From NCBI RefSeq assembly GCF_963675165.1, contig NC_087379.1, positions 5,907,442 to 5,971,441 of the forward strand: a stretch of 64,000 bases of DNA, read 5' to 3'. The notes under the pieces are model-generated. The model searched no databases. It was not told where the DNA came from and saw only the letters and a list, made by a program, of their open reading frames with translations. The position numbers and the translations under genes were made by a program. Shown one piece after another: positions 4,157 through 52,398 of the stretch; position 1 is the first letter of the stretch, and every line of letters begins with the position of its first letter. The DNA comes from Halichondria panicea (lineage: Eukaryota > Porifera > Demospongiae > Suberitida > Halichondriidae).

Positions 4157-4179
4157 TATTATATATACCGAGCACCCTC

Positions 4180-6087: not shown

Positions 6088-8319
6088 ATGGCTGAGAGAG
6101 TGACTACGAAAGAAGCTCTCAAGAAACTTGATGCTCAACTCGAATGCTCCCTTTGTCTCGACACTTTTAAGCAACCGAAACTCTTGCCTTGTTTTCATGT
6201 GTTTTGCAAGTCCCCGTGTCTGGAGAAACTAGTGACCAAGGATGGACGCTCCCTCACTTGTCCCACCTGTCGACACATTGTCCCACTGTCAGAGAGGGGA
6301 GTGGTTGGACTGCAATCAGACTTTCACATCGACCACTTGTTTGAGATACAAGATGCTTTCAACAAGGCCGAAGACGACAATAATAAGAACTGTGGCAGCT
6401 GTGAGAATGGCAGAGCCACCGGGTACTGTAACGACTGTGGGGACTTTTTGTGTGACAGGTGTCAAACTGCTCACAAATTTGTTAAACTTTCAAAAAATCA
6501 TAAACTAATTTCGCTGGATGAACTCAAAGCTCAAGTGACTAGCCTGGTTCCCCCCAAGAAGGCCGTCCCCCATTGTCCCAAACACTCGGAGAATGCCCTT
6601 AAGATATATTGCGATACATGCTCCACTCTCATTTGCATGGACTGCACCATTCGTATCCACAAAGACCACAACTACGACCTGGTGGCTGATGTGCTGACCA
6701 AGCACAAGGAAGAACTTGTCTCCAGTCTCAAACCAGTCAAAGAGAAGCTGGACAGTGTACACCGAGCTCTGAAGGACTTTGACACAAGAGCCAAGGCAAT
6801 CCACAATCAGAGGGCCGCGATTGAAGCCAACATCCACAAGGAGATTGACGAACAACATCGACTGTTGGACCAACGAAGGACAGAGCTTGTGGGAGAGCTA
6901 GAGATGCTGACTCAGCAAAAGCTTAAGGATCTGGCGGCACAAAGGGACCAAGTGGAGATCACTCAGGTGAAACTGACCAGCTGTCTGGAGTACACTGAGG
7001 GGGGTCTCAAAACAGGCACAGACGGTGAAGTACTCGAAATGAAATCTTCCGTTATTAAGAGAGTCGAACATTTTTCTACTGAATTTGAATCAAATGCTAT
7101 TCAACCAGAGACAAAAGCTGACATGGAACTGATCACTGAAGGAAAAGAATCTCTCCAACAAGCTTATCGAAATTTTCTACAGATTGATCACAGTGGTTCA
7201 TTCAGCTTAGAGAACAGCCACACGACAGGAAATGGTCTGAAAGGTGCTACAACTGGAGAAACAAAAACTGTGTCCTTTCAAGCAATGACCAAGAAAAACA
7301 AGAAATCCAAAAACAAACTCGACCTCAAAGCTGAACTTGTGCATATCGAAAGCAAAGATAAAAGTAAATGTGAAGTTGTGGTTGTTCGAAAACATGGCCA
7401 ATACAAGATCAACTATCGCCCTATGAAACGAGGAAAGCATGAACTACACATCACTGTCAATGGGGATGCAGTACGAGGCAGTCCATTCCCAATAGCTGTA
7501 GCCCCATCACCACAGAGCTTCGTCAAGCCTTCCCGAGTTGTGCGAGGTGTGAACAGCCCACGAGGCACTGTCTCCAACAATAAGGGTCAGTTGGTTGTTG
7601 TTGAAGGAGCTACTGTCTCTGTATTGACACCAGAGGGTGAGAAGATACAAACTTTTGGAAAGCTGAATAATGCGTATGGAGTGACTGTGGACAAAGACGA
7701 CAACATGTATGTGATGGAGTATGGCAATCATCGTGTGAACAAATTCTCATCTGACGGAGAGTTTGTGGCAGCTGTTGGTAGTCAAGGCAGTGGTAACCTT
7801 CAGTTTAGTAGCCCATTTGGAATCTGTTATAACAGAAGAGACAACAACCTGTATGTGCCTGATTGCAACAACCACAGAATACAAGTGATCTCTACTGAAC
7901 TGAAGTTCGTACGATGTTTCGGTACACAAGGCAATGGGAACGGACAATTACAAAACCCGTTTTGTACAACATTTGATAGTGCCAACAACCTCTATGTGAC
8001 TGATTACGATTACAGTAACCATCGAGTACAAGTCTTCACTGCTGAAGGTCAATTCTTGAGAACCTTCTCACAAAAAGCTAACGATCAGAAGCTGAGTCAA
8101 CCCTGGACCATAGCCATCGACAGCAGTGACACAGTGTACGTCAGTGAGAATGGACCGCATCATGTGAGTGTGTTCACATCTCAGGGAGCCTACATCACCA
8201 CGTTTGGTGGACCAGGAACAAAAGAGGGACAGTTTAATACCATTTATGGACTCTCTATTGATCGCAATGACTCTGTTGTTGTATCCGATCAAGGCAACAA
8301 GCGACTGCAGATATTCTAA
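6088..8319 (+). CDS. TRIM-NHL protein, copy T2 (743 aa)
   Basis: The start MAERVTTKEAL is chosen because every copy shares it just after a likely leader-intron acceptor; the open frame upstream is intronic. RING at about residues 20-61 (CSLC...CFHVFCKSPC...CPTC), B-box 1 about 102-139 (CGSC...CNDC...CDRC...H), B-box 2 about 163-194, coiled coil about 195-340, filamin-type domain ending in GSPFPIAV, NHL repeats over the last 240 residues. The role is probably a RING ubiquitin ligase with NHL-directed substrate or RNA binding, inferred from the family. Variable NHL loops: LNNAYG, FSSPFG, VPDCNNHR, NPFCTT and TDYDYSNHR, the last two residues longer than in other copies. The final 38 residues equal those of T5, suggesting exchange. 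Poly(A) signal at 8465; MED18 copy 2 starts at 8485. Confidence 0.95.
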   Translation: MAERVTTKEALKKLDAQLECSLCLDTFKQPKLLPCFHVFCKSPCLEKLVTKDGRSLTCPTCRHIVPLSERGVVGLQSDFHIDHLFEIQDAFNKAEDDNNKNCGSCENGRATGYCNDCGDFLCDRCQTAHKFVKLSKNHKLISLDELKAQVTSLVPPKKAVPHCPKHSENALKIYCDTCSTLICMDCTIRIHKDHNYDLVADVLTKHKEELVSSLKPVKEKLDSVHRALKDFDTRAKAIHNQRAAIEANIHKEIDEQHRLLDQRRTELVGELEMLTQQKLKDLAAQRDQVEITQVKLTSCLEYTEGGLKTGTDGEVLEMKSSVIKRVEHFSTEFESNAIQPETKADMELITEGKESLQQAYRNFLQIDHSGSFSLENSHTTGNGLKGATTGETKTVSFQAMTKKNKKSKNKLDLKAELVHIESKDKSKCEVVVVRKHGQYKINYRPMKRGKHELHITVNGDAVRGSPFPIAVAPSPQSFVKPSRVVRGVNSPRGTVSNNKGQLVVVEGATVSVLTPEGEKIQTFGKLNNAYGVTVDKDDNMYVMEYGNHRVNKFSSDGEFVAAVGSQGSGNLQFSSPFGICYNRRDNNLYVPDCNNHRIQVISTELKFVRCFGTQGNGNGQLQNPFCTTFDSANNLYVTDYDYSNHRVQVFTAEGQFLRTFSQKANDQKLSQPWTIAIDSSDTVYVSENGPHHVSVFTSQGAYITTFGGPGTKEGQFNTIYGLSIDRNDSVVVSDQGNKRLQIF

Positions 8320-9410
8320 CGAAATAAGTAGAAAAGTGGACAAAGTAGTACGTAGCTCTGTGTAGAAATAGTTGGTAGCGTTATTATTTTATTTGGAATG
8401 TGAAATGAAACTATTATTTGTTGCATGTGTTGATGCAATTATAGTGGTAGGTAAAGATCATCATAATAAAAAGTAACATCCAGCATGGCCATACAGCAAC
8501 CAAAACCTCCTCCAAATCAGCAGCTGTACAAGTTTCTACTGTTTGGCAGTGTGTCTGACAGTGAACTGCCCTCTTTACTGCACCGACTGAAAGGACTGGC
8601 TGACTTTGCAACCTGTGGAGGCATAGCATTCATTGACAAGGAGCAAACTTATAAAATTGGTCCGTGGCGTGTTAATAGTTTGTCCTGTACAGTATGTGAT
8701 ATATGCCACTGGTTATTTAATACAGAAATAGGCAACACTCGCTCTGTTGTTAGAGTTCGACAGTCGCTAGACAATGCCGAGGCCCCCTTGTGAGTTACGC
8801 ACCCCCCACACGTGTACCCCCACCCCATACCATATACATGTTACTACCTTGTTCCCCAGGCAACTCATATACACTGGGCAGCTGGACCTGGGTGATGCTA
8901 ACAGGCCGGCTGGAGTGAGGAGTTGTGTACACACTGCATGCAGTAACAACGCCGCAGAATGCCTCAAGGAAATGGGATTCATGTATACACTTTTAATGGC
9001 AGGAATGTGCCCAGCATTGTCTTGTATGGTGGCTATTTTCAATCCATAATCTCAAAACTAGAGCACTAAAGTGCTAACCCTCGGCCGGCTGTTGACATGA
9101 TCTCAAGTGTATAGCAACCCAAAGAGTGTTGCTGGCTATAAAGCAGCAAGTAACGTAACAGGCTGAGATTGAAGTTTTAGTATAATTATAGTACATGCAT
9201 TATTTGCCTGTTTATGACATCTGAGTTTTACCTCCATTCTGTATTCTATGGACTTAGCAAAGAAGCATGGAGTCTTAGAAATAATTTATGGCTCTTGGGG
9301 TATGCTGGTAGGAAAAGAAATAACAATCATAATTCTAGCTTTCTGCTTTAGTGACCCTGTTCTATTGTTCCTGATACAGGATCGCTTCAACTGTAATACG
9401 TATAGGCTAC

Positions 9411-9480
9411 CTCGAATAAAGGCCGCGTGTAGTTAGTTAGCTGCTAACGTGCAAGTTAGCTTTTGCTCGCTTTTATTCGA
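9411..9480. repeat. 70-bp inverted repeat (tcgaataaa arms)
   Basis: The arms tcgaataaa (9412-9420) and tttattcga (9472-9480) are perfect reverse complements. Counterparts are at 17501-17570, about 31546-31615, about 39259-39328 and about 53465-53534, the last with a decayed left arm. Possibly a miniature transposon relic. Confidence 0.5.
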
Positions 9481-9588
9481 CAACGAAGCTTTAACATCGA
9501 AATCTACCACTAATAACGTGTTGTGTGAAGGCTATCCATTCTGTAAACGCAGTGCTGTAGCATCCAGGTGAGGACTCACAATTACAAA

Positions 9589-9643
9589 CAGACAAACAAA
9601 CCAAACGACTACTATACCCTTGGCCGCCCACGCACGCCTCGGG
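9589..9643 (-). repeat. Interspersed repeat end, GC-rich (related to 11925-11999)
   Basis: Read on the minus strand this segment gives ccgaggcgtgcgtgg, gcggcc, a tatagtagtc block and tgtttgtctg. The insertion in IlvD fragment 2 begins with the same series of blocks. Family unknown. Confidence 0.45.
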
Positions 9644-10800
9644 TAATCAACACACAAATTTACCTTTTGTAATAACCTCTAAAATGTGGTAGAAACTACA
9701 TGTAGGCCTAAGAGGTGGTATATTTTTGTCTAGTCTAGAGGTGGTTAGTACCGACCACCACCGACCAGTGTGGTCATATCCCTACTTAAGTTTAACTACA
9801 CACACATTATAAATTCAACAGACACGATTCCAACAATTCAACATACATTTACAGTTTAGTTTATCAGTAATTACATAATTATTATATCTCCATGGGCAAC
9901 CCTGACAGTTTGTGCACACACTGACAGAGCTGTCTATGAGCTGATGAGTGAGAGGCTACGTGTTCAGAAAGGGGCAAATGAAGATTGCCGTCTTCAAACT
10001 CTATCAGGTGTGTGTTTATTTGTTGTTGCTAGCTGACACTAAACATTCCAGTGGGGACCATCCCCTTTACAGTCTAAATAGCTGGTGGCATTTAGAGTTG
10101 AACATATCTAACTTCCGTAGCATGTCTACAGTTTGGGTTGAACTACAAATACAGTTGAGTCCACCCTAGTTCAGGCGAGAGCACACACAGGATGGTAGTG
10201 GATGATTAGCATATACTGTTTGTAGGAGGAAACGTGTGAATTAATTGATGCTAACGAGTGCACCGTGTGGGTTGTGCTAGCCTACACAAGGGAAGATAGG
10301 TTGACTGCCTTTCCCTAATCCACCGATGTACCGGTAGTACATGTATGTGAAGGTGCACAGCTTAAAATGCATTCAAGAGTCTATATACATTTGTATATAT
10401 ATAATACAAGAGAGAGAAAAAAAGTATAGAAGGTAGCATAACCTTGCATCCGAAAATTAATGTAATCTCCTGCTTTGTAACAAAAGTGACCAATCTGAGG
10501 CCCAGAGCTGCTACTAATAAATTCTCATTAATTTGTTATGCGTTTCAGGCAGGAAGTCACGTGCTTTCCGAATTATTTCGGATGCACGGTTATACTACAT
10601 TCGATACTCTCTCTTATGGGCTTTTGATAATTATAGGGAAGTTTAGATAATTAAGCCTGTTGGGAAAAGTGCTACATAACGATAGGTAGATAAGGCAAGT
10701 TCTTGTTGTCTAGCAAGTACATAGCACTAAGTTATATGCCATTAAATATCGTGGTCAACATGGTAAATTTGTATTACTGTTCATACTACCCCTCCCCACC

Positions 10801-10824
10801 CACACACACACACACACACACACA
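10801..10824. repeat. (CA)n microsatellite abutting the MED18 exon 5 acceptor
   Basis: The CA run merges with the acceptor (cacacag|ccgtcagg). Its length differs in each copy: compare about 18939-18969, 32934-32950, 40314-40329 and 54869-54891. Confidence 0.85.
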
Positions 10825-10984
10825 GCCGTCAGGAGAAGGAGCTGGTGTGGCGGGTGCCCAGCTGTTGTCAGAGCACTACCTGGTGGAGTTGTCAGCTGTG
10901 ACCACATCAGGGCACGACAACGTTGGCATGGAGATGAGGGCTTTCGCTGAGCAACTCAAACCGTATCCTATGGAGCAATTGTGA

Positions 10985-14182: not shown

Positions 14183-16414
14183 ATGGCCGAGAGAGTGACA
14201 ACAAAAGAAGCTCTCAAGAAACTCGATGCTCAACTCGAATGCTCCCTTTGTCTCGACACTTTCAAGCAGCCGAAACTCTTGCCTTGTTTTCATGTGTTTT
14301 GCAAATCCCCGTGTCTGGAGAAACTAGTGACCAAGGATGGACGCTCCCTCACGTGTCCCACCTGTCGACACATTGTCCCACTGTCAGAGAGGGGAGTGGC
14401 TGGACTGCAATCAGACTTCCACATCGACCACTTGTTTGAGATACAAGATGCTTTCAACAAGGCCGACGACGACAATAATACACACTGTGGCAGCTGTGAG
14501 GATGGCAAAGCCACCGGGTACTGTAACGACTGTGGGGACTTTTTGTGTGACAGGTGTCAAACTGCTCACAAATTTGTTAAACTTTCAAAAAATCATAAAC
14601 TAATTTCGCTGGATGAACTCAAAGCTCAAGTGACTAGCCTGGTTCCCCCCAAGAAGGCCGTCCCCCATTGTCCCAAACACTTGGAGAATGCCCTTAAGAT
14701 ATATTGCGATACATGCTCCACTGTTATTTGCACGGACTGCACCATTCGTCTCCACAAAGACCACAACTACGACCTGGTGGCTGATGTGCTGACCAAGCAC
14801 AAGGAAGAACTTGCCTCCAGTCTCAAACCAGTCAAAGAGAAGCTGGACAGTGTACAACGAGCTCTGAAGGACTTTGACACAAGAGCCAAGGCAATCCACG
14901 ATCAGAGGGCCACGATTGAAGCCAACATCCACAATGAGATTGACGAACAACATCGACTGTTAGACCAACGAAGGGCACAGCTTGTGGGAGAGCTAGAGAT
15001 GCTGACTCATCAGAACCTGAAGGATCTGGCGGCACAGAGGGACCAAGTGGAGATCACTCAGGTGAAACTGGCCAGCTGTCTGGAGTACGCTGAGGGTGGT
15101 CTCAAAACAGGCACAGATGGTGAAGTACTCGAAATGAAAATTTCCGTTATTAAGAGAGTCGAACAAGTTTCTACTGAATTCGAATCAAATGCTATTCAAC
15201 CAGAGACAAAAGCTGACATGGAACTGATCACTGAAGGAAAAGAACCTCTCCAACAAGCTTGTCGAGAGTTCCTAGAGATTGAACAGCGTGGATCAATCAG
15301 CCTAGAGAACAGCCACACGACAGAAGATGGTCTGAAAGGTGCTACAACTGGAGAAACAAAAACTGTATCCTTTCAAGCAATGACCAAGAACAACAAGAAA
15401 TTCAACGGTAAACTCGACCTCAAAGCTGAACTTGTGCGTATTGAAAGCGAAGATAAAAGTAATTGTAAAGTGGTGATTGTTCAAAAACATGGCCAACACA
15501 AGATCAACTATCGCCCTATGAAACGAGGAAAGCATGAACTACACATCACTGTCAATGGCGATGCAGTACGAGGCAGTCCATTCCCAATAGCTGTAGCCCC
15601 ATCACCACAGAGCTTCGTCAAGCCTTCCCGAGTTGTACGAGGTGTGAACAACCCACGAGGCACTGTCTCCAACAGTAAGGGACAGTTGGTTGTTGTTGAT
15701 GGTAATGGAGCTACTGTCTCTGTATTGACACCAGAGGGTGAGAAGATACGATCGTTTGGACAGCTGAATAATGCATTTGGAGTGACTGTGGACAAAGACG
15801 ACAACATCTATGTAATGGATCCTAATAACCATCGTGTGAATAAGTTCTCATCCGACGGAGAGTTTGTGGCAGCTGTTGGTGGTAAAGGCAGTGGTAACCT
15901 TCGGCTTGATAACCCACTTGGTATCTGTTATAACAAAAGAGACAACAACCTGTATGTGGTTGATGAGTGTAACCACAGAATACAAGTGCTCTCTACTGAT
16001 TTGACGTTCATACGGTGTTTCGGTACACCTGGCAATGGGAACGGACAATTACAGCAACCACTATATGCAACATTTGATAGTGCCAACCACCTCTATGTGA
16101 CTGATCGTGGTAACGATCGAGTACAAGTCTTCACTGCTGAAGGTCAATTCCTGAGAACCTTCTCACAAAAAGCCGACGGTCAGAAGCTAAGTCGTCCCTG
16201 GGGCATAGCCATCGACAGTAGTGACACAGTGTACGTCAGTGAGAATGGACCGCATCATGTGAGTGTGTTTACATCTCAGGGAGCCTACATCACCACGTTT
16301 GGTGGGCGAGGAACGGAAGAGGGACAGTTTAGAAACATTTATGGACTCTCTATTGATCGCAATGACTCTGTTGTTGTATCCGATCAAGGCAACGGGCTAC
16401 TGCAGATATTCTAA
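14183..16414 (+). CDS. TRIM-NHL protein, copy T3 (743 aa)
   Basis: Starts MAERVTTKEAL and has the full set RING, B-box 1, B-box 2, coiled coil, filamin-type domain and NHL repeats, all zinc ligands present. The coiled-coil and linker region (VIKRVEQVSTEF, FLEIEQRGS) belongs to the T1-type allele, differing from the HFSTEF/FLQIDHSGS type of T2, T4-T8. It is the most divergent NHL domain of the array: LNNAFG, DPNNHR, LDNPLG, VVDECNHR, QPLYAT, TDRGNDR, FRNIYG and a C-terminal GLLQIF where others have RLQIF. A two-residue insertion, DGNGATV, occurs in the first NHL repeat. Ligand unknown. Poly(A) signal at 16549; the intact MED18 copy 3 follows at 16568. Confidence 0.95.
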   Translation: MAERVTTKEALKKLDAQLECSLCLDTFKQPKLLPCFHVFCKSPCLEKLVTKDGRSLTCPTCRHIVPLSERGVAGLQSDFHIDHLFEIQDAFNKADDDNNTHCGSCEDGKATGYCNDCGDFLCDRCQTAHKFVKLSKNHKLISLDELKAQVTSLVPPKKAVPHCPKHLENALKIYCDTCSTVICTDCTIRLHKDHNYDLVADVLTKHKEELASSLKPVKEKLDSVQRALKDFDTRAKAIHDQRATIEANIHNEIDEQHRLLDQRRAQLVGELEMLTHQNLKDLAAQRDQVEITQVKLASCLEYAEGGLKTGTDGEVLEMKISVIKRVEQVSTEFESNAIQPETKADMELITEGKEPLQQACREFLEIEQRGSISLENSHTTEDGLKGATTGETKTVSFQAMTKNNKKFNGKLDLKAELVRIESEDKSNCKVVIVQKHGQHKINYRPMKRGKHELHITVNGDAVRGSPFPIAVAPSPQSFVKPSRVVRGVNNPRGTVSNSKGQLVVVDGNGATVSVLTPEGEKIRSFGQLNNAFGVTVDKDDNIYVMDPNNHRVNKFSSDGEFVAAVGGKGSGNLRLDNPLGICYNKRDNNLYVVDECNHRIQVLSTDLTFIRCFGTPGNGNGQLQQPLYATFDSANHLYVTDRGNDRVQVFTAEGQFLRTFSQKADGQKLSRPWGIAIDSSDTVYVSENGPHHVSVFTSQGAYITTFGGRGTEEGQFRNIYGLSIDRNDSVVVSDQGNGLLQIF

Positions 16415-18933: not shown

Positions 18934-18970
<37 letters not shown>

Positions 18971-22301: not shown

Positions 22302-24527
22302 ATGGCTGAGAGAGTGACTACGAAAGAAGCTCTCAAGAAACTTGATGCTCAACTCGAATGCTCCCTTTGTCTCGACACTTTTAAGCAACCGAAACTCTTG
22401 CCTTGTTTTCATGTGTTTTGCAAGTCCCCGTGTCTGGAGAAACTAGTGACCAAGGATGGACGCTCCCTCACTTGTCCCACCTGTCGACACATTGTCCCAC
22501 TATCAGAGAGGGGAGTGGCTGGACTGCAATCAGACTTTCACATCGACCACTTGTTTGAGATACAAGATGCTTTCAACAAGGCCGAAGACGACAATGATAA
22601 GAACTGTGGCAGCTGTGAGAATGGCAGAGCCACCGGGTACTGTAACGACTGTAGGGACTTTTTGTGTGACAGGTGTCAAACTGCTCACAAATTTGTTAAA
22701 CTTTCAAAAAATCATAAACTAATTTCACTGGATGAACTCAAAGCTCAAGTGACTAGCCTGGTTCCCCCCAAGAAGGCCGTCCCCCATTGTCCCAAACACT
22801 CGGAGAATGCCCTTAAGATATATTGCGATACATGCTCCACTCTCATTTGCATGGACTGCACCATTCGTATCCACAAAGACCACAACTACGACCTGGTGGC
22901 TGATGTGCTGACCAAGCACAAGGAAGAACTTGTCTCCAGTCTCAAACCAGTCAAAGAGAAGCTGGACAGTGTACAACGAGCTCTGAAGGACTTTGACACA
23001 AGAGCCAAGACAATCCACAATCAGAGGGCCGCGATTGAAGCCAACATCCACAAGGAGATTGACGAACAACATCGACTGTTGGACCAACGAAGGACAGAGC
23101 TTGTGGGAGAGCTAGAGATGCTGACTCAGCAAAAGCTTAAGGATCTGGCGGCACAAAGGGACCAAGTGGAGATCACTCAGGTGAAACTGACCAGCTGTCT
23201 GGAGTACACTGAGGGGGGTCTCAAAACAGGCACAGACGGTGAAGTACTCGAAATGAAATCTTCCGTTATTAAGAGAGTCGAACATTTTTCTACTGAATTT
23301 GAATCAAATGCTATTCAACCAGAGACAAAAGCTGACATGGAACTGATCACTGAAGGAAAAGAATCTCTCCAACAAGCTTATCGAAATTTTCTACAGATTG
23401 ATCACAGTGGTTCATTCAGCTTAGAGAACAGCCACACGACAGGAAATGGTCTGAAAGGTGCTACAACTGGAGAAACAAAAACTGTGTCCTTTCAAGCAAT
23501 GACCAAGAAAAACAAGAAATCCAAAAACAAACTCGACCTCAAAGCTGAACTTGTGCATATCGAAAGCAAAGATAAAAGTAAATGTGAAGTTGTGGTTGTT
23601 CGAAAACATGGCCAATACAAGATCAACTATCGCCCTATGAAACGAGGAAAGCATGAACTACACATCACTGTCAATGGGGATGCAGTACGAGGCAGTCCAT
23701 TCCCAATAGCTGTAGCCCCATCACCACAGAGCTTCGTCAAGCCTTCCCGAGTTGTGCGAGGTGTGAACAGCCCACGAGGCACTGTCTCCAACAATAAGGG
23801 TCAGTTGGTTGTTGTTGAAGGAGCTACTGTCTCTGTATTGACACCAGAGGGTGAGAAGATACAAACTTTTGGAAAGCTGAATAATGCGTATGGAGTGACT
23901 GTGGACAAAGACGACAACATGTATGTGATGGAGTGTGGCAATCATCGTGTGAACAAATTCTCATCTGACGGAGAGTTTGTGGCAGCTGTTGGTAGTCCAG
24001 GCAGTAGTAACCTTCAGTTTAGTAACCCTTGTGGTATATGTTATAACAGAAGAGACAACAACCTGTATGTGACTGATCAGAATAACCACAGAATACAAGT
24101 GCTCTCTACTGATCTGAAGTTTGTACGATGTTTCGGTACACGTGGCAATGGGAACGGACAATTACAAAACCCATTTCATGCAACATTTGATAGTGCCAAC
24201 AACCTCTATGTGACTGATCGTGGTAACCGTCGAGTACAAGTCTTCACTGCTGAAGGTCAATTCCTGAGAACCTTCTCACAAAAAGCCAACGGTCAGAAGC
24301 TGAACTTACCCTTGGCCATAGCCATCGACAGCAGTGACACAGTGTACGTCAGTGAGAATGGACCGAATTTTGTGAGTGTGTTCACATCTCAGGGAGCCTA
24401 CATCACCACGTTTGGTGGACCAGGAACGAAAGAGGGACAGTTTAATCACATTTACGGACTCTCTATTAATCGAAATGACTCTGTTGTTGTGTCCGATTGT
24501 AACAATGAGCGACTGCAGATATTCTAA
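22302..24527 (+). CDS. TRIM-NHL protein, copy T4 (741 aa)
   Basis: All domains are present from MAERVTTKEAL to RLQIF. The RING-to-filamin part is nearly the same as in T2, T6 and T8; a notable change is CNDCRDF in B-box 1 (G in the others), which leaves the zinc ligands untouched. NHL loops: LNNAYG, MECGNHR, FSNPCG, VTDQNNHR, NPFHAT, TDRGNRR, NLPLAI, ENGPNFV, FNHIYG and SDCNNER. It is distinctive in the last two blades, where the other copies are almost constant. The downstream DNA is also divergent, and the neighbouring MED18 copy 4 is badly decayed. Family role as for T2; ligand unknown. Confidence 0.95.
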   Translation: MAERVTTKEALKKLDAQLECSLCLDTFKQPKLLPCFHVFCKSPCLEKLVTKDGRSLTCPTCRHIVPLSERGVAGLQSDFHIDHLFEIQDAFNKAEDDNDKNCGSCENGRATGYCNDCRDFLCDRCQTAHKFVKLSKNHKLISLDELKAQVTSLVPPKKAVPHCPKHSENALKIYCDTCSTLICMDCTIRIHKDHNYDLVADVLTKHKEELVSSLKPVKEKLDSVQRALKDFDTRAKTIHNQRAAIEANIHKEIDEQHRLLDQRRTELVGELEMLTQQKLKDLAAQRDQVEITQVKLTSCLEYTEGGLKTGTDGEVLEMKSSVIKRVEHFSTEFESNAIQPETKADMELITEGKESLQQAYRNFLQIDHSGSFSLENSHTTGNGLKGATTGETKTVSFQAMTKKNKKSKNKLDLKAELVHIESKDKSKCEVVVVRKHGQYKINYRPMKRGKHELHITVNGDAVRGSPFPIAVAPSPQSFVKPSRVVRGVNSPRGTVSNNKGQLVVVEGATVSVLTPEGEKIQTFGKLNNAYGVTVDKDDNMYVMECGNHRVNKFSSDGEFVAAVGSPGSSNLQFSNPCGICYNRRDNNLYVTDQNNHRIQVLSTDLKFVRCFGTRGNGNGQLQNPFHATFDSANNLYVTDRGNRRVQVFTAEGQFLRTFSQKANGQKLNLPLAIAIDSSDTVYVSENGPNFVSVFTSQGAYITTFGGPGTKEGQFNHIYGLSINRNDSVVVSDCNNERLQIF

Positions 24528-28262: not shown

Positions 28263-30485
28263 ATGGCTGAGAGAGTGACTACGAAAGAAGCTCTCAAGAA
28301 ACTTGATGCTCAACTCGAATGCTCCCTTTGTCTCGACACTTTCAAGCAGCCGAAACTTTTGCCTTGTTTTCACGTGTTTTGCAAGTCCCCGTGTCTGGAG
28401 AAACTAGTGACCAAGGATGGACGCTCCCTCACTTGTCCCACCTGTCGACACATTGTCCCACTGTCAGAGAGGGGAGTGGCTGGACTGCAATCAGACTTCC
28501 ACATCGACCACTTGTTTGATATACAAGATGCTTTCAACAAGGCCGAAGACAACAATGATACGAACTGTGGCAGCTGTGACGATGGTAGAGCCACCGGGTA
28601 CTGTAACGACTGTGGCGACTTTTTGTGTGACAAATGTCAAGCTGCTCATAAGATAGTGAAATATCTACGGAATCATAAACTAATTTCACTGGATGAACTC
28701 AAAGCTCAAGTGACTAGCCTGGTTCCCCCAAAGAAGGCCGTCCCCCATTGCCCCAAACACTCGGGGAATGACCTTAAAATATATTGCGATACCTGCTCCA
28801 CTCTTATTTGCATGGACTGCACCATTCGTATCCACAAAGACCACAACTACGACCTGGTGGCTGATGTGCTGACCAAGCACAAGGAAGAACTTGTCTCCAG
28901 CCTCAAACTAGTCAAAGAGAAGCTGGACAGTGTACAACGAGCTCTGAAGGACTTTGACACAAGAGCCAAGGCAATCCACGATCAGAGGGCCGCGATTGAA
29001 GCCAACATCCACAATGAGATTGACGAACAACATCGACTGTTGGACCAACGAAGGACAGAGCTTATGGTAGAGCTAGAGATGCTGACTCAGCAAAAGCTTA
29101 AGGATCTGGCGGCAGAAAGGGACCAAGTGGAGATCACTCAGGTGAAACTGACTAGCTGTCTGGAGTACGCTGAGGGGGGTCTCAAAACAGGCACAGACAG
29201 TGAAGTACTCGAAATGAAATCTTCCGTTATTAAGAGAGTCGAACATTTTTCTACTGAATTTGAATCAAATGCTATTCAACCAGAGACAAAAGCTGACATG
29301 GAACTGATCACTGAAGGAAAAGAACCTCTCCAACAAGCTTATCGAAATTTTTTACAGATTGATCACAGTGGTTCATTCGGCTTAGAGAACAGCCACACGA
29401 CAGGAAATGGTCTGAAAGGTGCTACAACTGGAGAAACAAAAACTGTGTCCTTTCAAGCAATGACCAAGAATTCCAACGGTAAACTCGACCTCAAAGCTGA
29501 ACTTGTGCATATCAAAAGCAAAGATAAAAGTAAATGTGAAGTGGTGATTGTTCGAAAACATGGCCAACACAAGATCAACTATCGCCCTATGAAACGAGGA
29601 AAGCATGAACTACACATCACTGTCAATGGGGACGCAGTACGAGGCAGTCCATTCCCAATAGCTGTAGCCCCATCACCACAGAGCTTCATCAAGCCTTCCC
29701 GAGTTGTACGAGGTGTGAACAGCCCACGAGGCACTGTCTCCAACAATAAGGGTCAGTTGGTTGTTGTTGTTGGTAATGGAGCTACCGTCTCTGTATTGAC
29801 ACCAGAGGGTGAGAAGATACAAACGTTTGGAAAGCTGAGTAATGCATTTGGAGTGACTGTGGACAAAGACGACAACATCTATGTAGTTGATTGTAACAAT
29901 CATCGTGTGAAGAAGTTCTCATCCGGCGGAGGTTTTGTGAAAGCTGTTGGTAGTCATGGCAGTAGTAACCTTCACTTTAATACCCCATTTGGTATATGTT
30001 ATAACAGAACAGACAACAACCTGTATGTGTCTGATCAGTGTAACAACAGAATACAAGTGCTCTCTACTGATTTGACGTTCATACGATGTTTCGGTATACG
30101 TGGAATTGGGAACGGACAATTACAAAACCCATTATATGCAGCATTTGATAGTGCCAACAACCTCTATGTGACTGATCATGGTAACAATCGAGTACAAGTC
30201 TTCACTGCTGGAGGTCAATTCCTGAGAACCTTCTCACAAAAAGCCAACGGTCAGAAGCTAAGTCATCCCTGGGCCATAGCCATCGACAGTAGTGACACAG
30301 TGTACGTCAGTGAGAATGAACCACATCATATGAGTGTGTTCACATCTCAGGGAGCCTACATTACCACGTTTGGTGGACCAGGAACAAAAGAGGGACAGTT
30401 TAATACCATTTATGGACTCTCTATTGATCGCAATGACTCTGTTGTTGTATCCGATCAAGGCAACAAGCGACTGCAGATATTCTAA
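28263..30485 (+). CDS. TRIM-NHL protein, copy T5 (740 aa)
   Basis: Complete domain set. B-box 1 is the alternative type shared with T7 (CDDGRATGYC, CDKCQAAHKIVKYLRNHKL) instead of CENGRATGYC/CDRCQTAHKFVKLSK. B-box 2 has SGNDLKIYC. Three residues are missing before the filamin domain (TKNSNGKLDL). Its NHL domain is unlike its neighbours in the first three repeats (LSNAFG, VVDCNNHR, FSSGGGFVKA, FNTPFG, VSDQCNNR, CFGIRGIG, NPLYAA, TDHGNNR) but identical to T2 over the last 38 residues. This patchwork indicates gene conversion or unequal crossing-over. Intact MED18 copy 5 follows at 30651. Confidence 0.95.
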   Translation: MAERVTTKEALKKLDAQLECSLCLDTFKQPKLLPCFHVFCKSPCLEKLVTKDGRSLTCPTCRHIVPLSERGVAGLQSDFHIDHLFDIQDAFNKAEDNNDTNCGSCDDGRATGYCNDCGDFLCDKCQAAHKIVKYLRNHKLISLDELKAQVTSLVPPKKAVPHCPKHSGNDLKIYCDTCSTLICMDCTIRIHKDHNYDLVADVLTKHKEELVSSLKLVKEKLDSVQRALKDFDTRAKAIHDQRAAIEANIHNEIDEQHRLLDQRRTELMVELEMLTQQKLKDLAAERDQVEITQVKLTSCLEYAEGGLKTGTDSEVLEMKSSVIKRVEHFSTEFESNAIQPETKADMELITEGKEPLQQAYRNFLQIDHSGSFGLENSHTTGNGLKGATTGETKTVSFQAMTKNSNGKLDLKAELVHIKSKDKSKCEVVIVRKHGQHKINYRPMKRGKHELHITVNGDAVRGSPFPIAVAPSPQSFIKPSRVVRGVNSPRGTVSNNKGQLVVVVGNGATVSVLTPEGEKIQTFGKLSNAFGVTVDKDDNIYVVDCNNHRVKKFSSGGGFVKAVGSHGSSNLHFNTPFGICYNRTDNNLYVSDQCNNRIQVLSTDLTFIRCFGIRGIGNGQLQNPLYAAFDSANNLYVTDHGNNRVQVFTAGGQFLRTFSQKANGQKLSHPWAIAIDSSDTVYVSENEPHHMSVFTSQGAYITTFGGPGTKEGQFNTIYGLSIDRNDSVVVSDQGNKRLQIF

Positions 30486-35932: not shown

Positions 35933-38158
35933 ATGGCTGAGAGAGTGACTACGAAAGAAGCTCTCAAGAAACTTGATGCTCAACTCGAATGCTCCCTTTG
36001 TCTCGACACTTTTAAGCAACCGAAACTCTTGCCTTGTTTTCATGTGTTTTGCAAGTCCCCGTGTCTGGAGAAACTAGTGACCAAGGATGGACGCTCCCTC
36101 ACTTGTCCCACCTGTCGACACATTGTCCCACTGTCAGAGAGGGGAGTGGCTGGACTGCAATCAGACTTTCACATCGACCACTTGTTTGAGATACAAGATG
36201 CTTTCAACAAGGCCGAAGACGACAATGATAAGAACTGTGGCAGCTGTGAGAATGGCAGAGCCACCGGGTACTGTAACGACTGTGGGGACTTTTTGTGTGA
36301 CAGGTGTCAAACTGCTCACAAATTTGTTAAACTTTCAAAAAATCATAAACTAATTTCGCTGGATGAACTCAAAGCTCAAGTGACTAGCCTGGTTCCCCCC
36401 AAGAAGGCCGTCCCCCATTGTCCCAAACACTCGGAGAATGCCCTTAAGATATATTGCGATACATGCTCCACTCTCATTTGCATGGACTGCACCATTCGTA
36501 TCCACAAAGACCACAACTACGACCTGGTGGCTGATGTGCTGACCAAGCACAAGGAAGAACTTGTCTCCAGTCTCAAACCAGTCAAAGAGAAGCTGGACAG
36601 TGTACAACGAGCTCTGAAGGACTTTGACACAAGAGCCAAGGCAATCCACAATCAGAGGGCCGCGATTGAAGCCAACATCCACAAGGAGATTGACGAACAA
36701 CATCGACTGTTGGACCAACGAAGGACAGAGCTTGTGGGAGAGCTAGAGATGCTGACTCAGCAAAAGCTTAAGGATCTGGCGGCACAAAGGGACCAAGTGG
36801 AGATCACTCAGGTGAAACTGACCAGCTGTCTGGAGTACACTGAGGGGGGTCTCAAAACAGGCACAGACGGTGAAGTACTCGAAATGAAATCTTCCGTTAT
36901 TAAGAGAGTCGAACATTTTTCTACTGAATTTGAATCAAACGCTATTCAGCCAGAGACAAAAGCTGACATGGAACTGATCACTGAAGGAAAAGAATCTCTC
37001 CAACAAGCTTGTCGAGATTTCCTACAGATTGATCACAGTGGTTCATTCAGCTTAGAGAACAGCCACACGACAGGAAATGGTCTGAAAGGTGCTACAACTG
37101 GAGAAACAAAAACTGTGTCCTTTCAAGCAATGACCAAGAAAAACAAGAAATCCAAAAACAAACTCGACCTCAAAGCTGAACTTGTGCATATCGAAAGCAA
37201 AGATAAAAGTAAATGTGAAATTGTGGTTGTTCGAAAACATGGCCAATACAAGATCAACTATCGCCCTATGAAACGAGGAAAGCATGAACTACACATCACT
37301 GTCAATGGGGATGCAGTACGAGGCAGTCCATTCCCAATAGCTGTAGCTCCATCACCACAGAGCTTTGTCAAGCCTTCCCGAGTTGTGCGAGGTGTGAACA
37401 GCCCACGAGGCACTGTCTCCAACAATAAGGGTCAGTTGGTTGTTGTTGAAGGAGCTACTGTCTCTGTATTGACACCAGAGGGTGAGAAGATACAAACGTT
37501 TGGAAAGCTGAATAGTGCATATGGAGTGACTGTGGACAAAGATGACAACATGTATGTGATGGAGTATGGCAATCATCGTTTGAGTAAATTCTCATCTGAC
37601 GGAGAGTTTGTGGCAGCTGTTGGTAGTCAAGGCAGTGGTAACCTTCAGTTTAGTAACCCTGTTGGTATATGTTATAACAGAAGAGACAACAACCTGTATG
37701 TGCCTGATCAGAGTAACCACAGAATACAAGTGCTCTCTACTGAACTGAAGTTCGTACGATGTTTCGGTACACGTGGCAAAGGGAACGGACAATTACAAAA
37801 CCCGTTTTGTGCAACATTTGATAGTGCCAACAACCTCTATGTGACTGATTACAGTAACCATCGAGTACAAGTCTTCACTGCTGAAGGTCAATTCTTGAGA
37901 ACCTTCTCACAAAAAGCTAACGATCAGAAGCTGAGTCAACCCTGGACCATAGCCATCGACAGCAGTGACACAGTGTACGTCAGTGAGAATGGACCGCATC
38001 ATGTGAGTGTGTTCACATCTCAGGGAGCCTACATCACCACGTTTGGTGGACAAGGAATGAAAGAGGGACAGTTTAGTAGCATTTACGGACTCTCTATTGA
38101 TCGCAATGACTCTGTTGTTGTGTCCGATCTGGACAATGGACGACTGCAGATATTCTAA
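35933..38158 (+). CDS. TRIM-NHL protein, copy T6 (741 aa)
   Basis: Complete domain set from MAERVTTKEAL to RLQIF; RING-to-filamin nearly the same as T2/T4 apart from ACRDFLQIDHSGS and KCEIVVV. NHL loops: LNSAYG, MEYGNHRLSKF, FSNPVG, VPDQSNHR, TRGKGNG, NPFCAT, TDYSNHR, SQPWTI, FSSIYG and SDLDNGR. The middle blades resemble T2 but without its two-residue insertion, and the last blade (SDLDNGR) equals that of T8. Function as a RING-type TRIM-NHL protein is inferred from the family. Poly(A) signal at 38296; defective MED18 copy 6 follows. Confidence 0.95.
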   Translation: MAERVTTKEALKKLDAQLECSLCLDTFKQPKLLPCFHVFCKSPCLEKLVTKDGRSLTCPTCRHIVPLSERGVAGLQSDFHIDHLFEIQDAFNKAEDDNDKNCGSCENGRATGYCNDCGDFLCDRCQTAHKFVKLSKNHKLISLDELKAQVTSLVPPKKAVPHCPKHSENALKIYCDTCSTLICMDCTIRIHKDHNYDLVADVLTKHKEELVSSLKPVKEKLDSVQRALKDFDTRAKAIHNQRAAIEANIHKEIDEQHRLLDQRRTELVGELEMLTQQKLKDLAAQRDQVEITQVKLTSCLEYTEGGLKTGTDGEVLEMKSSVIKRVEHFSTEFESNAIQPETKADMELITEGKESLQQACRDFLQIDHSGSFSLENSHTTGNGLKGATTGETKTVSFQAMTKKNKKSKNKLDLKAELVHIESKDKSKCEIVVVRKHGQYKINYRPMKRGKHELHITVNGDAVRGSPFPIAVAPSPQSFVKPSRVVRGVNSPRGTVSNNKGQLVVVEGATVSVLTPEGEKIQTFGKLNSAYGVTVDKDDNMYVMEYGNHRLSKFSSDGEFVAAVGSQGSGNLQFSNPVGICYNRRDNNLYVPDQSNHRIQVLSTELKFVRCFGTRGKGNGQLQNPFCATFDSANNLYVTDYSNHRVQVFTAEGQFLRTFSQKANDQKLSQPWTIAIDSSDTVYVSENGPHHVSVFTSQGAYITTFGGQGMKEGQFSSIYGLSIDRNDSVVVSDLDNGRLQIF

Positions 38159-43683: not shown

Positions 43684-45903
43684 ATGGCTGAGAGAGTGAC
43701 TACGAAAGAAGCTCTCAAGAAACTTGATGCTCAACTCGAATGCTCCCTTTGTCTCGACACTTTTAAGCAACCGAAACTCTTGCCTTGTTTTCATGTGTTT
43801 TGCAAGTCCCCGTGTCTGGAGAAACTAGTGACCAAGGATGGACGCTCCCTCACTTGTCCCACCTGTCGACACATTGTCCCGCTGTCAGAGAGAGGAGTGG
43901 CTGGACTGCAATCAGACTTCCACATCGACCACTTGTTTGAGATACAAGATGCTTTCAACAAGGCCGAAGACGACAATGATACGAACTGTGGAAGCTGTGA
44001 CGATGGTAGAGCCACTGGGTACTGTAACGACTGTGGGGACTTTTTGTGTGACAAATGTCAAGCTGCTCATAAGATAGTGAAATATCTACGGAATCATAAA
44101 CTAATTTCACTGGATGAACTCAAAGCTCAAGTGACTAGCCTGGTTCCCCCAAAGAAGGCCGTCCCCCATTGCCCCAAACACTTGGGGAATGACCTCAAAA
44201 TATATTGCGATACCTGCTCCACTCTTATTTGCATGGACTGCACCATTCATATCCACAAAGACCACAACTACGACCTGGTGGCTGATGTGCTGACCAAGCA
44301 CAAGGAAGAACTTGTCTCCAGTCTCAAACCAGTCAAAGAGAAGCTGGACAGTGTACAACGAGCTCTGAAGGACTTTGACACAAGAGCCAAGGCAATCCAC
44401 GATCAGAGGGCCGCGATTAAAGCCAACATCCACAATGAGATTGACGAACAACATCGACTGTTGGACCAACGAAGGACAGAGCTTGTGGGAGAGCTAGAGA
44501 TGCTGACTCAGCAAAAGCTTAAGGATCTGGCGGCACAAAGGGACCAAGTGGAGATCACTCAGGTGAAACTGACCAGCTGTCTGGAGTACGCTGAGGGGGG
44601 TCTCAAAACAGGCACAGACGGTGAAGTACTCGAAATGAAATCTTTCGTTATTAAGAGAGTCGAACATTTTTCTACTGAATTTGAATCAAATGCTATTCAA
44701 CCAGAGACAAAAGCTGACATGGAACTGATCACTGAAGGAAAAGAATCTCTCCAACATGCTTGTCGAAATTTTCTACAGATTGATCACAGTGGTTCATTCA
44801 GCTTAGAGAACAGCCACACGACAGGAAATGGTCTGAAAGGTGCTACAACTGGAGAAACAAAAACTGTGTCCTTTCAAGCAATGACCAAGAACAACAAGAA
44901 TTCCAACGGTAAACTTGACCTCAAAGCTGAACTTGTGCATATCGAAAGCAAAGATAAAAGTAAATGTGAAGTGGTGATTGTTTGAAAACATGGCCAACAC
45001 AAGATCAACTATCGTCCTATGAAACGAGGAAAGCATGAACTACACATCACTGTCAATGGGGACGCAGTACGAGGCAGTCCATTCCCAATAGCTGTAGCCC
45101 CATCACCACAGAGCTTCATCAAGCCTTCCCGAGTTGTACGAGGTGTGAACAGCCCACGAGACACTGTCTTCAACAGTAAGGGACAGTTGATTGTTGTTGA
45201 AGGAGCTACTGTCTCTGTATTGACACCAGAGGGTGAAAAGATACGAACGTTTGGTCAGCTGAATGATGGTATTGGAGTGACTGTGGACAAAGACAACAAC
45301 ATGTATGTGATGGAGTATGGCAATCATCGTGTGAATAAGTTCTCATCTGACGGAGAGTTTGTGGCAGCTGTTGGTAGTCTAGGCAATGGTAACCTTCAGT
45401 TTACTAACCCTGTTGGTATATGTTATAACAGAAGAGACAACAACCTGTATGTGGTTGATCAGAGTAAGCACAGAATAAAAGTGCTCTCTACTGAACTGAA
45501 GTTTGTACGGTGTTTCGGTACACGTGGCAATGGGAACGGACAATTACAAAGCCCATTTCATGCATCATTTGATAGCGCTAACAACCTCTATGTGACTGAT
45601 CATCTTAACAATCGAGTACAAGTCTTCACTGCTGAAGGTCAATTCCTGAGAACCTTCTCACAAAAAGCCGACGGTCAGAAGCTAAGTCGTCCCTGGGCCA
45701 TAGCCATCGACAGCAGTGACACAGTGTACGTCAGTGAGAATGGACCGCATCATGTGAGTGTGTTCACATCTCAGGGAGCCTACATCACCACGTTTGGTGG
45801 GACGGAAAAGGGACAGTTTAATAGCATTTACGGACTCTCTATTGATCGCAATGACTCTGTTGTTGTATCCGATCAAGGCAACGGGCGACTGCAGATATTC
45901 TAA
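43684..45903 (+). pseudogene. TRIM-NHL copy T7, nonsense codon in filamin domain
   Basis: The frame is continuous from MAERVTTKEAL to RLQIF except for TGA at 44983-44985, where every sister copy has CGA (arginine in VVIVRKHG). The open part before it would encode 433 residues with RING, both B-boxes and coiled coil but no NHL. B-box 1 is the T5 type (CDDGRATGYC). After about 45035 the sequence is that of T1. It could be a fresh pseudogene, a truncated product lacking the recognition domain, or a sequencing or allelic difference; everything else is well conserved, so the change is recent. MED18 copy 7 follows at 46056. Confidence 0.9.
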
Positions 45904-49614: not shown

Positions 49615-50166
49615 ACCAACTGAACATTGTAGTAGAGGCCAAAGTTTTAGTTTTGTCCTGTAGAGCAAAGATTTAATTACATTAATTATACACTCTTATT
49701 ATGCATGCTTGTATAAACCGTGTTTTGCAGCTATACATAATTATCATTGTGCACTAGTTGTGGCCTAATGATGTGGAGTCTAATGTACAATGTTTCGTTA
49801 TCAAATGTGCGAATGATTTATTGGAATGTCTTCAGCACATGTTTCTTTCAAACTCTTCACTCGTTGAGCTACAATGTAGGTGTACATGTGTTTACCTTGT
49901 GTTTGTGGTTGTTTCTTCAGAACTTTTCTTATGGAATGTTGCTGTGAATATTGTTACCAATAATTATGACGTACGTCACCCCATTTTTCTTCAAGCTCAA
50001 AAGGAATTGTGAGTTCCTAGATCCTATATTTATAATAGGTACAGGTATCCCTGTGCATCACCTGTACTCTTCTTTGAATATCTATGTGTTATTTTGGCAT
50101 ATAATATTCAACAATGTTGTGTGTCGACCCCACAGAAAAACAAACCTTACGATAATTCCCAAAGCC
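49615..50166 (+). promoter_or_regulatory. TRIM T8 5' flank
   Basis: Perfect palindrome TGACGTACGTCA at 49967-49978, then the leader-intron donor GTGAGT and an acceptor (gaccccacag, two extra bases) about 30 nt before the ATG. Very close to the T5 flank. No gene seen. Confidence 0.5.
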
Positions 50167-52398
50167 ATGGCTGAGAGAGTGACTACGAAAGAAGCTCTCA
50201 AGAAACTTGATGCTCAACTCGAATGCTCCCTTTGTCTCGACACTTTTAAGCAACCGAAACTCTTGCCTTGTTTTCATGTGTTTTGCAAGTCCCCGTGTCT
50301 GGAGAAACTAGTGACCAAGGATGGACGCTCCCTCACTTGTCCCACCTGTCGACACATTGTCCCACTGTCAGAGAGGGGAGTGGCTGGACTGCAATCAGAC
50401 TTTCACATCGACCACTTGTTTGAGATACAAGATGCTTTCAACAAGGCCGAAGACGACAATGATAAGAACTGTGGCAGCTGTGAGAATGGCAGAGCCACCG
50501 GGTACTGTAACGACTGTGGGGACTTTTTGTGTGACAGGTGTCAAACTGCTCACAAATTTGTTAAACTTTCAAAAAATCATAAACTAATTTCGCTGGATGA
50601 ACTCAAAGCTCAAGTGACTAGCCTGGTTCCCCCCAAGAAGGCCGTCCCCCATTGTCCCAAACACTCGGAGAATGTCCTTAAGATATATTGCGATACATGC
50701 TCCACTCTCATTTGCATGGACTGCACCATTCGTATCCACAAAGACCACAACTACGACCTGGTGGCTGATGTGCTGACCAAGCACAAGGAAGAACTTGTCT
50801 CCAGTCTCAAACCAGTCAAAGAGAAGCTGGACAGTGTACAACGAGCTCTGAAGGACTTTGACACAAGAGCCAAGGCAATCCACAATCAGAGGGCCGCGAT
50901 TGAAGCCAACATCCACAAGGAAATTGACGAACAACATCGACTGTTGGACCAACGAAGGACAGAGCTTGTGGGAGAGCTAGAGATGCTGACTCAGCAAAAG
51001 CTTAAGGATCTGGCGGCACAAAGGGACCAAGTGGAGATCACTCAGGTGAAACTGACCAGCTGTCTGGAGTACACTGAGGGGGGTCTCAAAACAGGCACAG
51101 ACGGTGAAGTACTCGAAATGAAATCTTCCGTTATTAAGAGAGTCGAACATTTTTCTACTGAATTTGAATCAAATGCTATTCAACCAGAGACAAGGGCTGA
51201 CATAGAACTGATCACTAAAGGAAAAGAACCTCTCCAACAAGCTTATCGAAATTTTCTACAGATTGATCACAGTGGTTCATTCAGCTTAGAGAACAGCCAC
51301 ACGACAGGAAATGGTCTGAAAGGTGCTACAACTGGAGAAACAAAAACTGTGTCCTTTCAAGCAATGACCAAGAAAAACAAGAAATCCAAAAACAAACTCG
51401 ACCTCAAAGCTGAACTTGTGCATATCGAAAGCAAAGATAAAAGTAAATGTGAAGTTGTGGTTGTTCGAAAACATGGCCAATACAAGATCAACTATCACCC
51501 TATGAAACGAGGAAAGCATGAACTACACATCACTGTCAATGGGGATGCAGTACGAGGCAGTCCATTCCCAATAGCTGTAGCCCCATCACCACAGAGCTTC
51601 GTCAAGCCTTCCCGAGTTGTGCGAGGTGTGAACAGCCCACGAGGCACTGTCTCCAACAATAAGGGACAGTTGGTTGTTGTTGAAGGTGGTGGAGCTACTG
51701 TCTCTGTATTGACACCGGAGGGTGAGAACATACGAACATTTGGAAAGCTGAGTAATGCACATGGAGTGACTGTGGACAAAGACAACAACATGTATGTGAT
51801 GGAGTATGGCAATCATCGTGTGAACAAATTCTCATCTGACGGAGAGTTTGTGGCAGCTGTTGGTAGTCCAGGCAGTGGTAACCTTCAGTTTACTAACCCT
51901 GTTGGTATATGTTATAACAGAAGAGACAACGACCTGTATGTGGTTGATCAGTGTAACCACAGAATACAAGTGCTTTCTACTGATTTGACGTTCATACGAT
52001 GTTTCGGTACACGTGGCAATGGGAACGGTCAATTACAAAGCCCACTATTTGCAGCATTTGATAGTGCCAACAACCTCTATGTGACTGACCACGGTAACCA
52101 TCGAGTACAAGTCTTCACTGCTGAAGGTCAATTTCTGGGAACCTTCTCACAAAAAGCCAACGGTCAGAAGCTAAGTCGTCCCTATGCCATAGCCATCGAC
52201 AGTAGTGACACAGTGTACGTCAGTGAGAATGGACCGCATCATGTGAGTGTGTTCACATCTCAGGGAGCCTACATCACCACGTTTGGTGGACCAGGAACGA
52301 AAGAGGGACAGTTTTATGGCATTTATGGACTCTCTATTGATCGCAATGACTCTGTTGTTGTGTCCGATCTGGACAATGGGCGACTGCAGATATTCTAA
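50167..52398 (+). CDS. TRIM-NHL protein, copy T8 (743 aa), terminal copy
   Basis: Complete domain set; RING-to-coiled coil as T2/T4/T6, with small private changes (SENVLKIYC, ETRADIELITKGKE, INYHPMKRG). NHL loops: EGGGATV, LSNAHG, MEYGNHR, FTNPVG, VVDQCNHR, SPLFAA, TDHGNHR, SRPYAI, FYGIYG and SDLDNGR. It mixes T1-like (FTNPVG), T5-like (LSTDLTFIRC) and T6-like (SDLDNGR) segments. It is the last unit before single-copy DNA and is followed by an intact MED18, so it may be closest to the ancestral locus. Function inferred from the family; ligand unknown. Confidence 0.95.
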   Translation: MAERVTTKEALKKLDAQLECSLCLDTFKQPKLLPCFHVFCKSPCLEKLVTKDGRSLTCPTCRHIVPLSERGVAGLQSDFHIDHLFEIQDAFNKAEDDNDKNCGSCENGRATGYCNDCGDFLCDRCQTAHKFVKLSKNHKLISLDELKAQVTSLVPPKKAVPHCPKHSENVLKIYCDTCSTLICMDCTIRIHKDHNYDLVADVLTKHKEELVSSLKPVKEKLDSVQRALKDFDTRAKAIHNQRAAIEANIHKEIDEQHRLLDQRRTELVGELEMLTQQKLKDLAAQRDQVEITQVKLTSCLEYTEGGLKTGTDGEVLEMKSSVIKRVEHFSTEFESNAIQPETRADIELITKGKEPLQQAYRNFLQIDHSGSFSLENSHTTGNGLKGATTGETKTVSFQAMTKKNKKSKNKLDLKAELVHIESKDKSKCEVVVVRKHGQYKINYHPMKRGKHELHITVNGDAVRGSPFPIAVAPSPQSFVKPSRVVRGVNSPRGTVSNNKGQLVVVEGGGATVSVLTPEGENIRTFGKLSNAHGVTVDKDNNMYVMEYGNHRVNKFSSDGEFVAAVGSPGSGNLQFTNPVGICYNRRDNDLYVVDQCNHRIQVLSTDLTFIRCFGTRGNGNGQLQSPLFAAFDSANNLYVTDHGNHRVQVFTAEGQFLGTFSQKANGQKLSRPYAIAIDSSDTVYVSENGPHHVSVFTSQGAYITTFGGPGTKEGQFYGIYGLSIDRNDSVVVSDLDNGRLQIF

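What the first reader, a model, noticed from the sequence alone, without database searches (positions are those of the whole stretch)
6088..52398. NHL-propeller diversity confined to one face across a tandem TRIM-NHL array
Comparing copies T1-T6 and T8, most differences in the NHL domain fall in two recurrent positions of each repeat: the segment before the P-x-G (FTNPVG, FSSPFG, LDNPLG, FSNPCG, FNTPFG; SPFHAS, NPFCTT, QPLYAT, NPLYAA, SPLFAA) and the loop before the arginine (VVDQSKHR, VPDCNNHR, VVDECNHR, VTDQNNHR, VSDQCNNR; TDHLNNR, TDYDYSNHR, TDRGNDR, TDRGNRR). In the NHL fold these are the D-A and B-C loops, which lie on the same face as the ligand/RNA surface known from Brat-type NHL domains. 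The A-B and C-D loops (DSANN, DRNDS, TAEGQ, TSQGA) are almost invariant. The RING, B-boxes and coiled coil are also near constant. This is the pattern of a recognition repertoire with a common effector end, possibly for foreign RNA or protein.
Basis: partly seen in the sequence, partly recalled or inferred. Interest (0 to 1): 0.9.

Follow-up and report, generated by a model that had tools for sequence, protein, structure and literature searches.

The report
Sponge TRIM-NHL recognition gene array
A sponge genome carries large tandem arrays of TRIM-NHL ubiquitin-ligase genes whose copies share a conserved ligase end but differ, under positive selection, at the ring of propeller positions that a related animal protein uses to grip RNA, which looks like a repertoire of recognition proteins with unknown targets.

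Summary
The window lies on a contig of 8,483,533 bases, the length listed for a protein named Halichondria panicea, a sponge. It holds 8 of at least 35 copies of one TRIM-NHL family, 32 of them at C3:5.88-6.31 Mb. In 30 NHL copies, codon models with varying synonymous rates reject 'no positive selection' (2dlnL 105 on one tree, 84 on three; 30 null simulations with recombination reached at most 26). The signal stands out in the NHL domain, on the D-A/B-C face: omega 1.4-1.7 against 0.4 for A-B/C-D loops. All 14 DrLIN41 RNA-contact residues that PMC5908797 names fall at five recurring positions per blade; 19 of the 26 most variable sponge sites fall in the same set. Two other families in this genome repeat the pattern. 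New here: ligase half and propeller recombine (R4/R6 share the ligase half but not the propeller, T1/T7 the reverse). The ligand is unknown; the variable face is poor in Lys/Arg, which argues against LIN41-like RNA binding. An immune role is inference.

The parts
2..1813 (+). T1, TRIM-NHL gene, cut by the window start (match starts at C3:5907035); NHL 1004-1810
6088..8319 (+). T2, open 743-aa TRIM-NHL (RING, two B-boxes, coiled-coil region, filamin, NHL); NHL 7498-8316
14183..16414 (+). T3, open TRIM-NHL; NHL 15593-16411
22302..24527 (+). T4, open TRIM-NHL; NHL 23712-24524
28263..30485 (+). T5, open TRIM-NHL; NHL 29664-30482
35933..38158 (+). T6, open TRIM-NHL from the conserved MAERVTT start (stop-to-stop frame begins at 35843); NHL 37343-38155
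43684..45903 (+). T7, TRIM-NHL with one in-frame TGA (44983-44985); NHL 45094-45900 has no difference from that of T1
50167..52398 (+). T8, open TRIM-NHL from the conserved MAERVTT start; NHL 51577-52395 (residues 1-273 of the modelled domain)
51751..52095 (+). T8 NHL residues 59-173 (blades 2-4), where variation is densest; contact-equivalent residues here: 59, 60, 62, 77, 78, 106, 107, 109, 125, 126, 154, 155, 157, 172, 173

Best explanation
The array is a repertoire of TRIM-NHL ubiquitin ligases in a sponge. Each protein has the same effector half (RING, two B-boxes, coiled-coil region, filamin), kept by purifying selection, and a six-bladed NHL propeller. On one face of the propeller about five positions per blade (the two residues before strand a's proline, the x of P-x-G, and the two residues after the B-C aspartate) are diversified by positive selection. 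These are the positions that contact RNA in LIN41. Recombination between copies exchanges the propeller relative to the ligase half, and blade motifs occur in new combinations. Shown: the copies, their predicted fold, positive selection, its place, recombination, and two more families doing the same. Inferred: that the face binds ligands that change (microbial, viral or transposon proteins most likely; RNA less likely), and that binding recruits ubiquitination by the RING, as in TRIM5alpha or finTRIM but with an NHL propeller in place of B30.2.
Against: No ligand, expression, ligase-activity or population data. NG86 for whole top loops gives only 0.94 (0.67-1.34); the class mean exceeds 1 only with codon models or with the contact set, where one tree gives 1.30 and three trees 2.34. 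Some signal lies outside the top loops: 2dlnL of the remaining positions is 23, 14 and 11 on one, three and six trees, which is within the null range but not nil; strand a gives 26-28, and B-box 1 has two sites above 0.9 on one tree, none on eight. Single-site calls are unsafe: null simulations gave on average 5.6 and at most 29 sites above 0.9. Contact codons also have raised silent divergence (pS 0.27 against 0.13), so part of the signal comes with imported or multi-base changes. The tests of families C11 and D used one tree and had no null simulations. The codon model is my own script, not a published package. An immune role rests on analogy.
Confidence: 0.62

Rival explanations
1. RNA reading: the propellers bind many different RNAs (host mRNAs, or transposon or viral RNA), as Brat, LIN41 and Mei-P26 do, and the loops set RNA specificity.
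For: The variable positions are the RNA-contact positions of LIN41. PMC5908797 (sections 8 and 10 read) reports that NHL surfaces evolved distinct RNA modes.
Against: The 30 positions hold 8.2% Lys+Arg in the sponge copies against 32% of 25 in DrLIN41; net charge is on average +1.3 over 30 against +5 over 25. A Brat-like base-reading mode is not excluded.
Confidence: 0.2
2. Ordinary structural constraint: in any NHL propeller D-A and B-C loops are free and A-B/C-D turns tight; the copies drift after duplication.
For: Bottom turns carry conserved G and D/N in NHL repeats, and top loops vary between NHL families (established knowledge of the fold). No single-copy NHL family was analysed here as a control.
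Against: Drift gives omega up to 1, not 1.3-2.4 at the contact set or 2.9-8 in the top loops of the other families; the ligase half is under purifying selection (pN/pS 0.38), so the genes are not decaying.
Confidence: 0.07
3. Mutational or conversion-driven hotspot, even a targeted diversification mechanism, raises change at these codons without selection on the protein.
For: Silent divergence is also about twice as high at contact codons; 49% of differing contact codon pairs differ at two or three bases against about 10% elsewhere; at some sites the third base hardly varies (position 107: 11 residues, third base C in 30 of 30).
Against: Excess change at codon positions 1 and 2 over 3, and sharp placement on one face at non-contiguous codons, fit selection. 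Codons of the AAY type, expected of adenine-directed retroelement diversification (recalled), are 0-19 of 30 per site.
Confidence: 0.06
4. Self/non-self or partner recognition: the faces bind polymorphic host proteins (allorecognition, or copy-specific pairing) rather than foreign molecules.
For: Sponges have allorecognition (recalled); positive selection and gene conversion among paralogues are common in such systems (recalled).
Against: The domain content is that of intracellular TRIM proteins, an unusual place for allorecognition. Signal peptides and membrane segments were not looked for.
Confidence: 0.1

Closest known systems
finTRIM genes of teleost fish (PMC2657112; listing and 12 passages seen) and primate TRIM5alpha (as described there)
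   Same: Large, duplicated TRIM family; C-terminal ligand domain under positive selection in the loops of one binding surface; recombination detected.
   Different: finTRIM/TRIM5 use the B30.2 domain, in TRIM5alpha a virus-recognition surface; here an NHL propeller in a sponge, with the gene in one open frame; ligand unknown.
TRIM71/LIN-41 (NHL bound to an RNA hairpin, PMC5908797)
   Different: Most of LIN41's contact residues are identical between species (PMC5908797) and its face is basic; here the same positions differ between copies (29 distinct combinations in 30) and are not basic.
Drosophila Thin NHL domain
   Different: Not known to me as a multigene repertoire (recalled).
NLR and SRCR receptor expansions in sponges (PMC8242945 passages; PMC10855680, PMC12909245 listing only)
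   Same: Large families of recognition proteins in sponges.
   Different: Other domains. The 12 of 18 passages seen in PMC8242945 name NHL repeats only in a figure legend and describe no TRIM-NHL repertoire.

Membership tests
TRIM class VII / Subfamily C (filamin-NHL TRIM) | RING finger with zinc-ligand pattern | tested here: met
   Pfam PF00097; pattern in 23 of 23 family-1, 7 of 7 C11, 5 of 5 D sequences fetched
TRIM class VII / Subfamily C (filamin-NHL TRIM) | B-box zinc fingers | tested here: met
   PF00643, two stretches; B-box2 pattern in 23 of 23
TRIM class VII / Subfamily C (filamin-NHL TRIM) | Coiled coil | tested here: inconclusive
   No coil predictor was run; residues 162-352 align with TRIM3 chain 8amr, whole-sequence E 2.9e-33
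TRIM class VII / Subfamily C (filamin-NHL TRIM) | Filamin domain and six-bladed NHL propeller | tested here: met
TRIM class VII / Subfamily C (filamin-NHL TRIM) | E3 ligase activity | not testable with these tools
   Needs a biochemical assay
LIN41/TRIM71-type RNA binder | Basic face with conserved contact residues | tested here: not met
   8.2% Lys+Arg at the 30 positions, and the positions are variable; DrLIN41 32% of 25
finTRIM-type diversified TRIM repertoire | B30.2 (PRY/SPRY) domain | tested here: not met
   No B30.2 family among the 13 listed for T2 or T8; filamin and NHL instead. Works like it, is not a member
finTRIM-type diversified TRIM repertoire | Many copies with positive selection concentrated in ligand-face loops | tested here: met
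Adenine-directed retroelement diversification (DGR) | AAY-derived variable codons, template repeat and reverse transcriptase (recalled) | tested here: inconclusive
   AAY codons are 0-19 of 30 per site, which fits poorly; template and reverse transcriptase were not searched

The most novel reading that the evidence does not exclude
Sponges have a germline-encoded, intracellular recognition repertoire of about a hundred or more TRIM-NHL ligases, in which the face that other animals use to bind RNA in development has become a hypervariable, blade-by-blade recombining binding surface for foreign molecules, aimed at destruction by a shared ubiquitin-ligase half.
Probability: 0.42. Interest if true: 0.92.

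Novelty: new variant of a known kind. Interest (0 to 1): 0.8.

Why it matters
NHL-type TRIM proteins are known as conserved regulators of development and RNA. A large family whose NHL face is the target of positive selection would extend the 'one ligase, many recognition heads' design of TRIM5/finTRIM to another domain and to an early-branching animal. It gives a concrete set of 30 positions to test for ligand specificity, and natural swap pairs (same ligase half with different propeller, and the reverse) that separate recognition from effector function.

Tried and rejected
Relaxed constraint or drift: rejected as sole cause, since omega exceeds 1 at the contact set on one, three and six trees, and in the top loops of two more families.

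Recombination artefact: 30 null simulations with three histories, analysed on one tree, reached 2dlnL 26 at most, against 105. They also gave false single sites (mean 5.6, maximum 29 above 0.9), so single-site lists are not relied on.

Identity-tract test on 160 silent columns: only 2 of 231 pairs passed a global 5% threshold (T1/T7, R4/R6). Other recombination rests on segment trees (lnL -6480 against -6791, with two more trees of 57 branches) and on domain contrasts. Silent divergence did not rise smoothly towards contact codons, so no hitchhiking gradient is claimed.

LIN41-like RNA binding as a shared function: not supported by composition.

In print: ten library searches listed no paper on such a repertoire in sponges or on positive selection in an NHL domain. 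The lists were capped (for example 12 of 305 papers, 20 of 504), I saw titles, abstract starts and the passages cited, and the library holds no bioRxiv collection and few subscription journals.

Counting the C11 and D families by whole-genome protein search did not complete, so their sizes are only seen through NHL and filamin matches.

Full report
WHERE IT IS. The window is G000:C3:5907442-5971441 of a 131-Mb genome in 39 contigs. Contig C3 has 8,483,533 bases, the same length as the contig listed for protein P0015, named 'E3 ubiquitin-protein ligase TRIM71-like [Halichondria panicea]'. The window is therefore most likely from this sponge.

WHAT IS THERE. Eight copies, T1-T8, lie head to tail on the plus strand. 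Pfam finds RING, two B-boxes, filamin and NHL in T2 and T8. A search of the genome with T2 lists 35 places at 77% identity or more (36 rows; two belong to one gene, R4), 32 of them at C3:5.88-6.31 Mb. Of the 35, 29 are open over nearly the whole length (one of these lacks a match to the first 20 residues) and 6 are broken or partial. This is a lower bound, as 60 of 334 candidates were scored. The array runs plus (10 genes), then minus (8 genes), then plus again. NHL matches elsewhere cluster at C3:0.07-0.80 Mb (family D, with more at 1.87-1.92 Mb) and C11:0.86-1.34 Mb (family C11); 150 scored matches of 830 candidates fall at 106 places more than 1.5 kb apart. Not all of these need be whole TRIM genes.

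DATA USED. 22 full copies and 8 NHL-only copies: 30 of the 35 places. T7's stop codon was masked.

VARIATION. Mean entropy: D-A 0.84, B-C 1.10, A-B 0.30, C-D 0.37, strands 0.16-0.48. Of the 26 most variable sites 19 are among the 30 contact-equivalent positions (five in each of six blades), p 3e-16. The other seven are mostly at D-A and B-C loops too. The 30 copies show 29 distinct 30-residue combinations; T1 and T7 are alike.

SELECTION. Pooled NG86 dN/dS: top loops 0.94 (0.67-1.34), bottom loops 0.27, strands 0.41. A grid codon model with separate synonymous and nonsynonymous rates, written here, gave 2dlnL 105 (one tree), 84 (three trees) and 68 (six blade trees, 29 copies without T7). Thirty null data sets simulated with three histories and analysed on one tree had a mean of 11 and a maximum of 26. 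Class omegas: top 1.41/1.72, bottom 0.43/0.41; contact set 1.30/2.34/2.44, remaining non-loop positions about 0.42. In 22 full-length copies the NHL domain stands out: 88 or 59, against at most 8.7 or 3.3 in any other domain. Sites above 0.9: 29 (one tree) or 16 (three trees), of which 14 and 10 are in the contact set; because null data gave up to 29 such sites, only their placement is used. Some signal remains outside the top loops (2dlnL 23, 14, 11 for the remaining positions), within the null range. Codon positions 1 and 2 differ more than 3 at contact codons (0.346, 0.388, 0.265), the reverse of the rest (0.057, 0.042, 0.113).

REPLICATION. Family C11 (7 copies fetched): top loops omega 3.15, bottom 0.46, RING-to-filamin 0.47; family D (5 copies fetched): 8.0, 0.52, 0.46 (one tree each, no simulations; the RING-to-filamin/NHL border of D is rough, because the T8 reference aligned early, and shifts some filamin columns into NHL but not into loops). 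NG86 pN/pS at contact codons is 1.82 and 2.41. With a separate model of a C11 propeller (pLDDT 95.1), 26 of 29 positions with three or more residues lie in D-A/B-C, p 1.4e-11, omega 2.93 against 0.53. Two of the groups may be haplotypes of one another. Those are proteins only, so no dN/dS.

RECOMBINATION. R4 and R6 have 0 differences over 1407 RING-to-filamin nucleotide sites but 20 silent and 30 nonsynonymous ones in NHL. T1 and T7 have 0 in NHL but 40 and 38 in RING-to-filamin. T2/T4/T6/T8: silent divergence 0.011 in RING-to-filamin, 0.080 in the non-loop part of NHL, 0.29 at contact codons. The T1/T7 switch falls near +1350 from the ATG, close to the filamin/NHL border at +1410, and the identity goes on for more than 2 kb past the stop. 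R4/R6 are alike from the ATG to about +1500, differ by 6-13% over +1650 to +2100, and by 1-3% for about 600 bp after that; further out there are insertions and stretches of higher divergence. Motif distances of different blades are only weakly correlated (-0.05 to 0.29), so blades vary almost independently.

READING. The design is one conserved ligase half and many propeller faces. It works like finTRIM and TRIM5alpha (PMC2657112 passages) but is a filamin-NHL TRIM by domains. The face is polar and aromatic (46% N/Q/S/T, 14% F/W/Y) and low in Lys+Arg (8.2% against 32% in DrLIN41), so protein ligands are favoured over a LIN41-like RNA grip; a Brat-like mode remains open. That the ligands are foreign is inference from the form of selection.

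Noticed in passing
window 5007-5522 and six further units (ORFs starting at 12969, 21212, 27247, 35013, 42629, 49096): Each of the units T1-T8 carries a 3' exon of a dihydroxy-acid dehydratase (PF24877) mostly 0.6-0.9 kb upstream of the TRIM gene. Of 19 matches in the genome 18 lie at C3:5.883-5.957 Mb and one beside the C9 copy, so the exons are passengers of the repeat unit or part of an odd gene.
   Followed up: partly
C3:6111342-6121247 (L025/L026): Five tandem minus-strand ORFs of 537-556 aa downstream of the minus array; the one scanned is a UDP-glycosyltransferase (PF00201).
   Followed up: partly
C3 about 5988900-5993900 (L013/L014): 5,000 N between the plus and the minus array; a gap or a withheld stretch.
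   Followed up: no
C5:5.62-5.80 Mb: A further group of filamin or NHL matches in long open frames (six places together); one was fetched (L046) but none was analysed for selection.
   Followed up: no
NHL residue 107 of T8 numbering (blade 3): Eleven residues in 30 copies, all with codon third base C; the first two bases take all four letters. Selection can explain it, but it is unusually clean.
   Followed up: partly
window 2-11251 and 44092-55320: A direct duplication of 11.3 kb at 96.8% identity that spans part of T1 plus T2, and part of T7 plus T8.
   Followed up: partly
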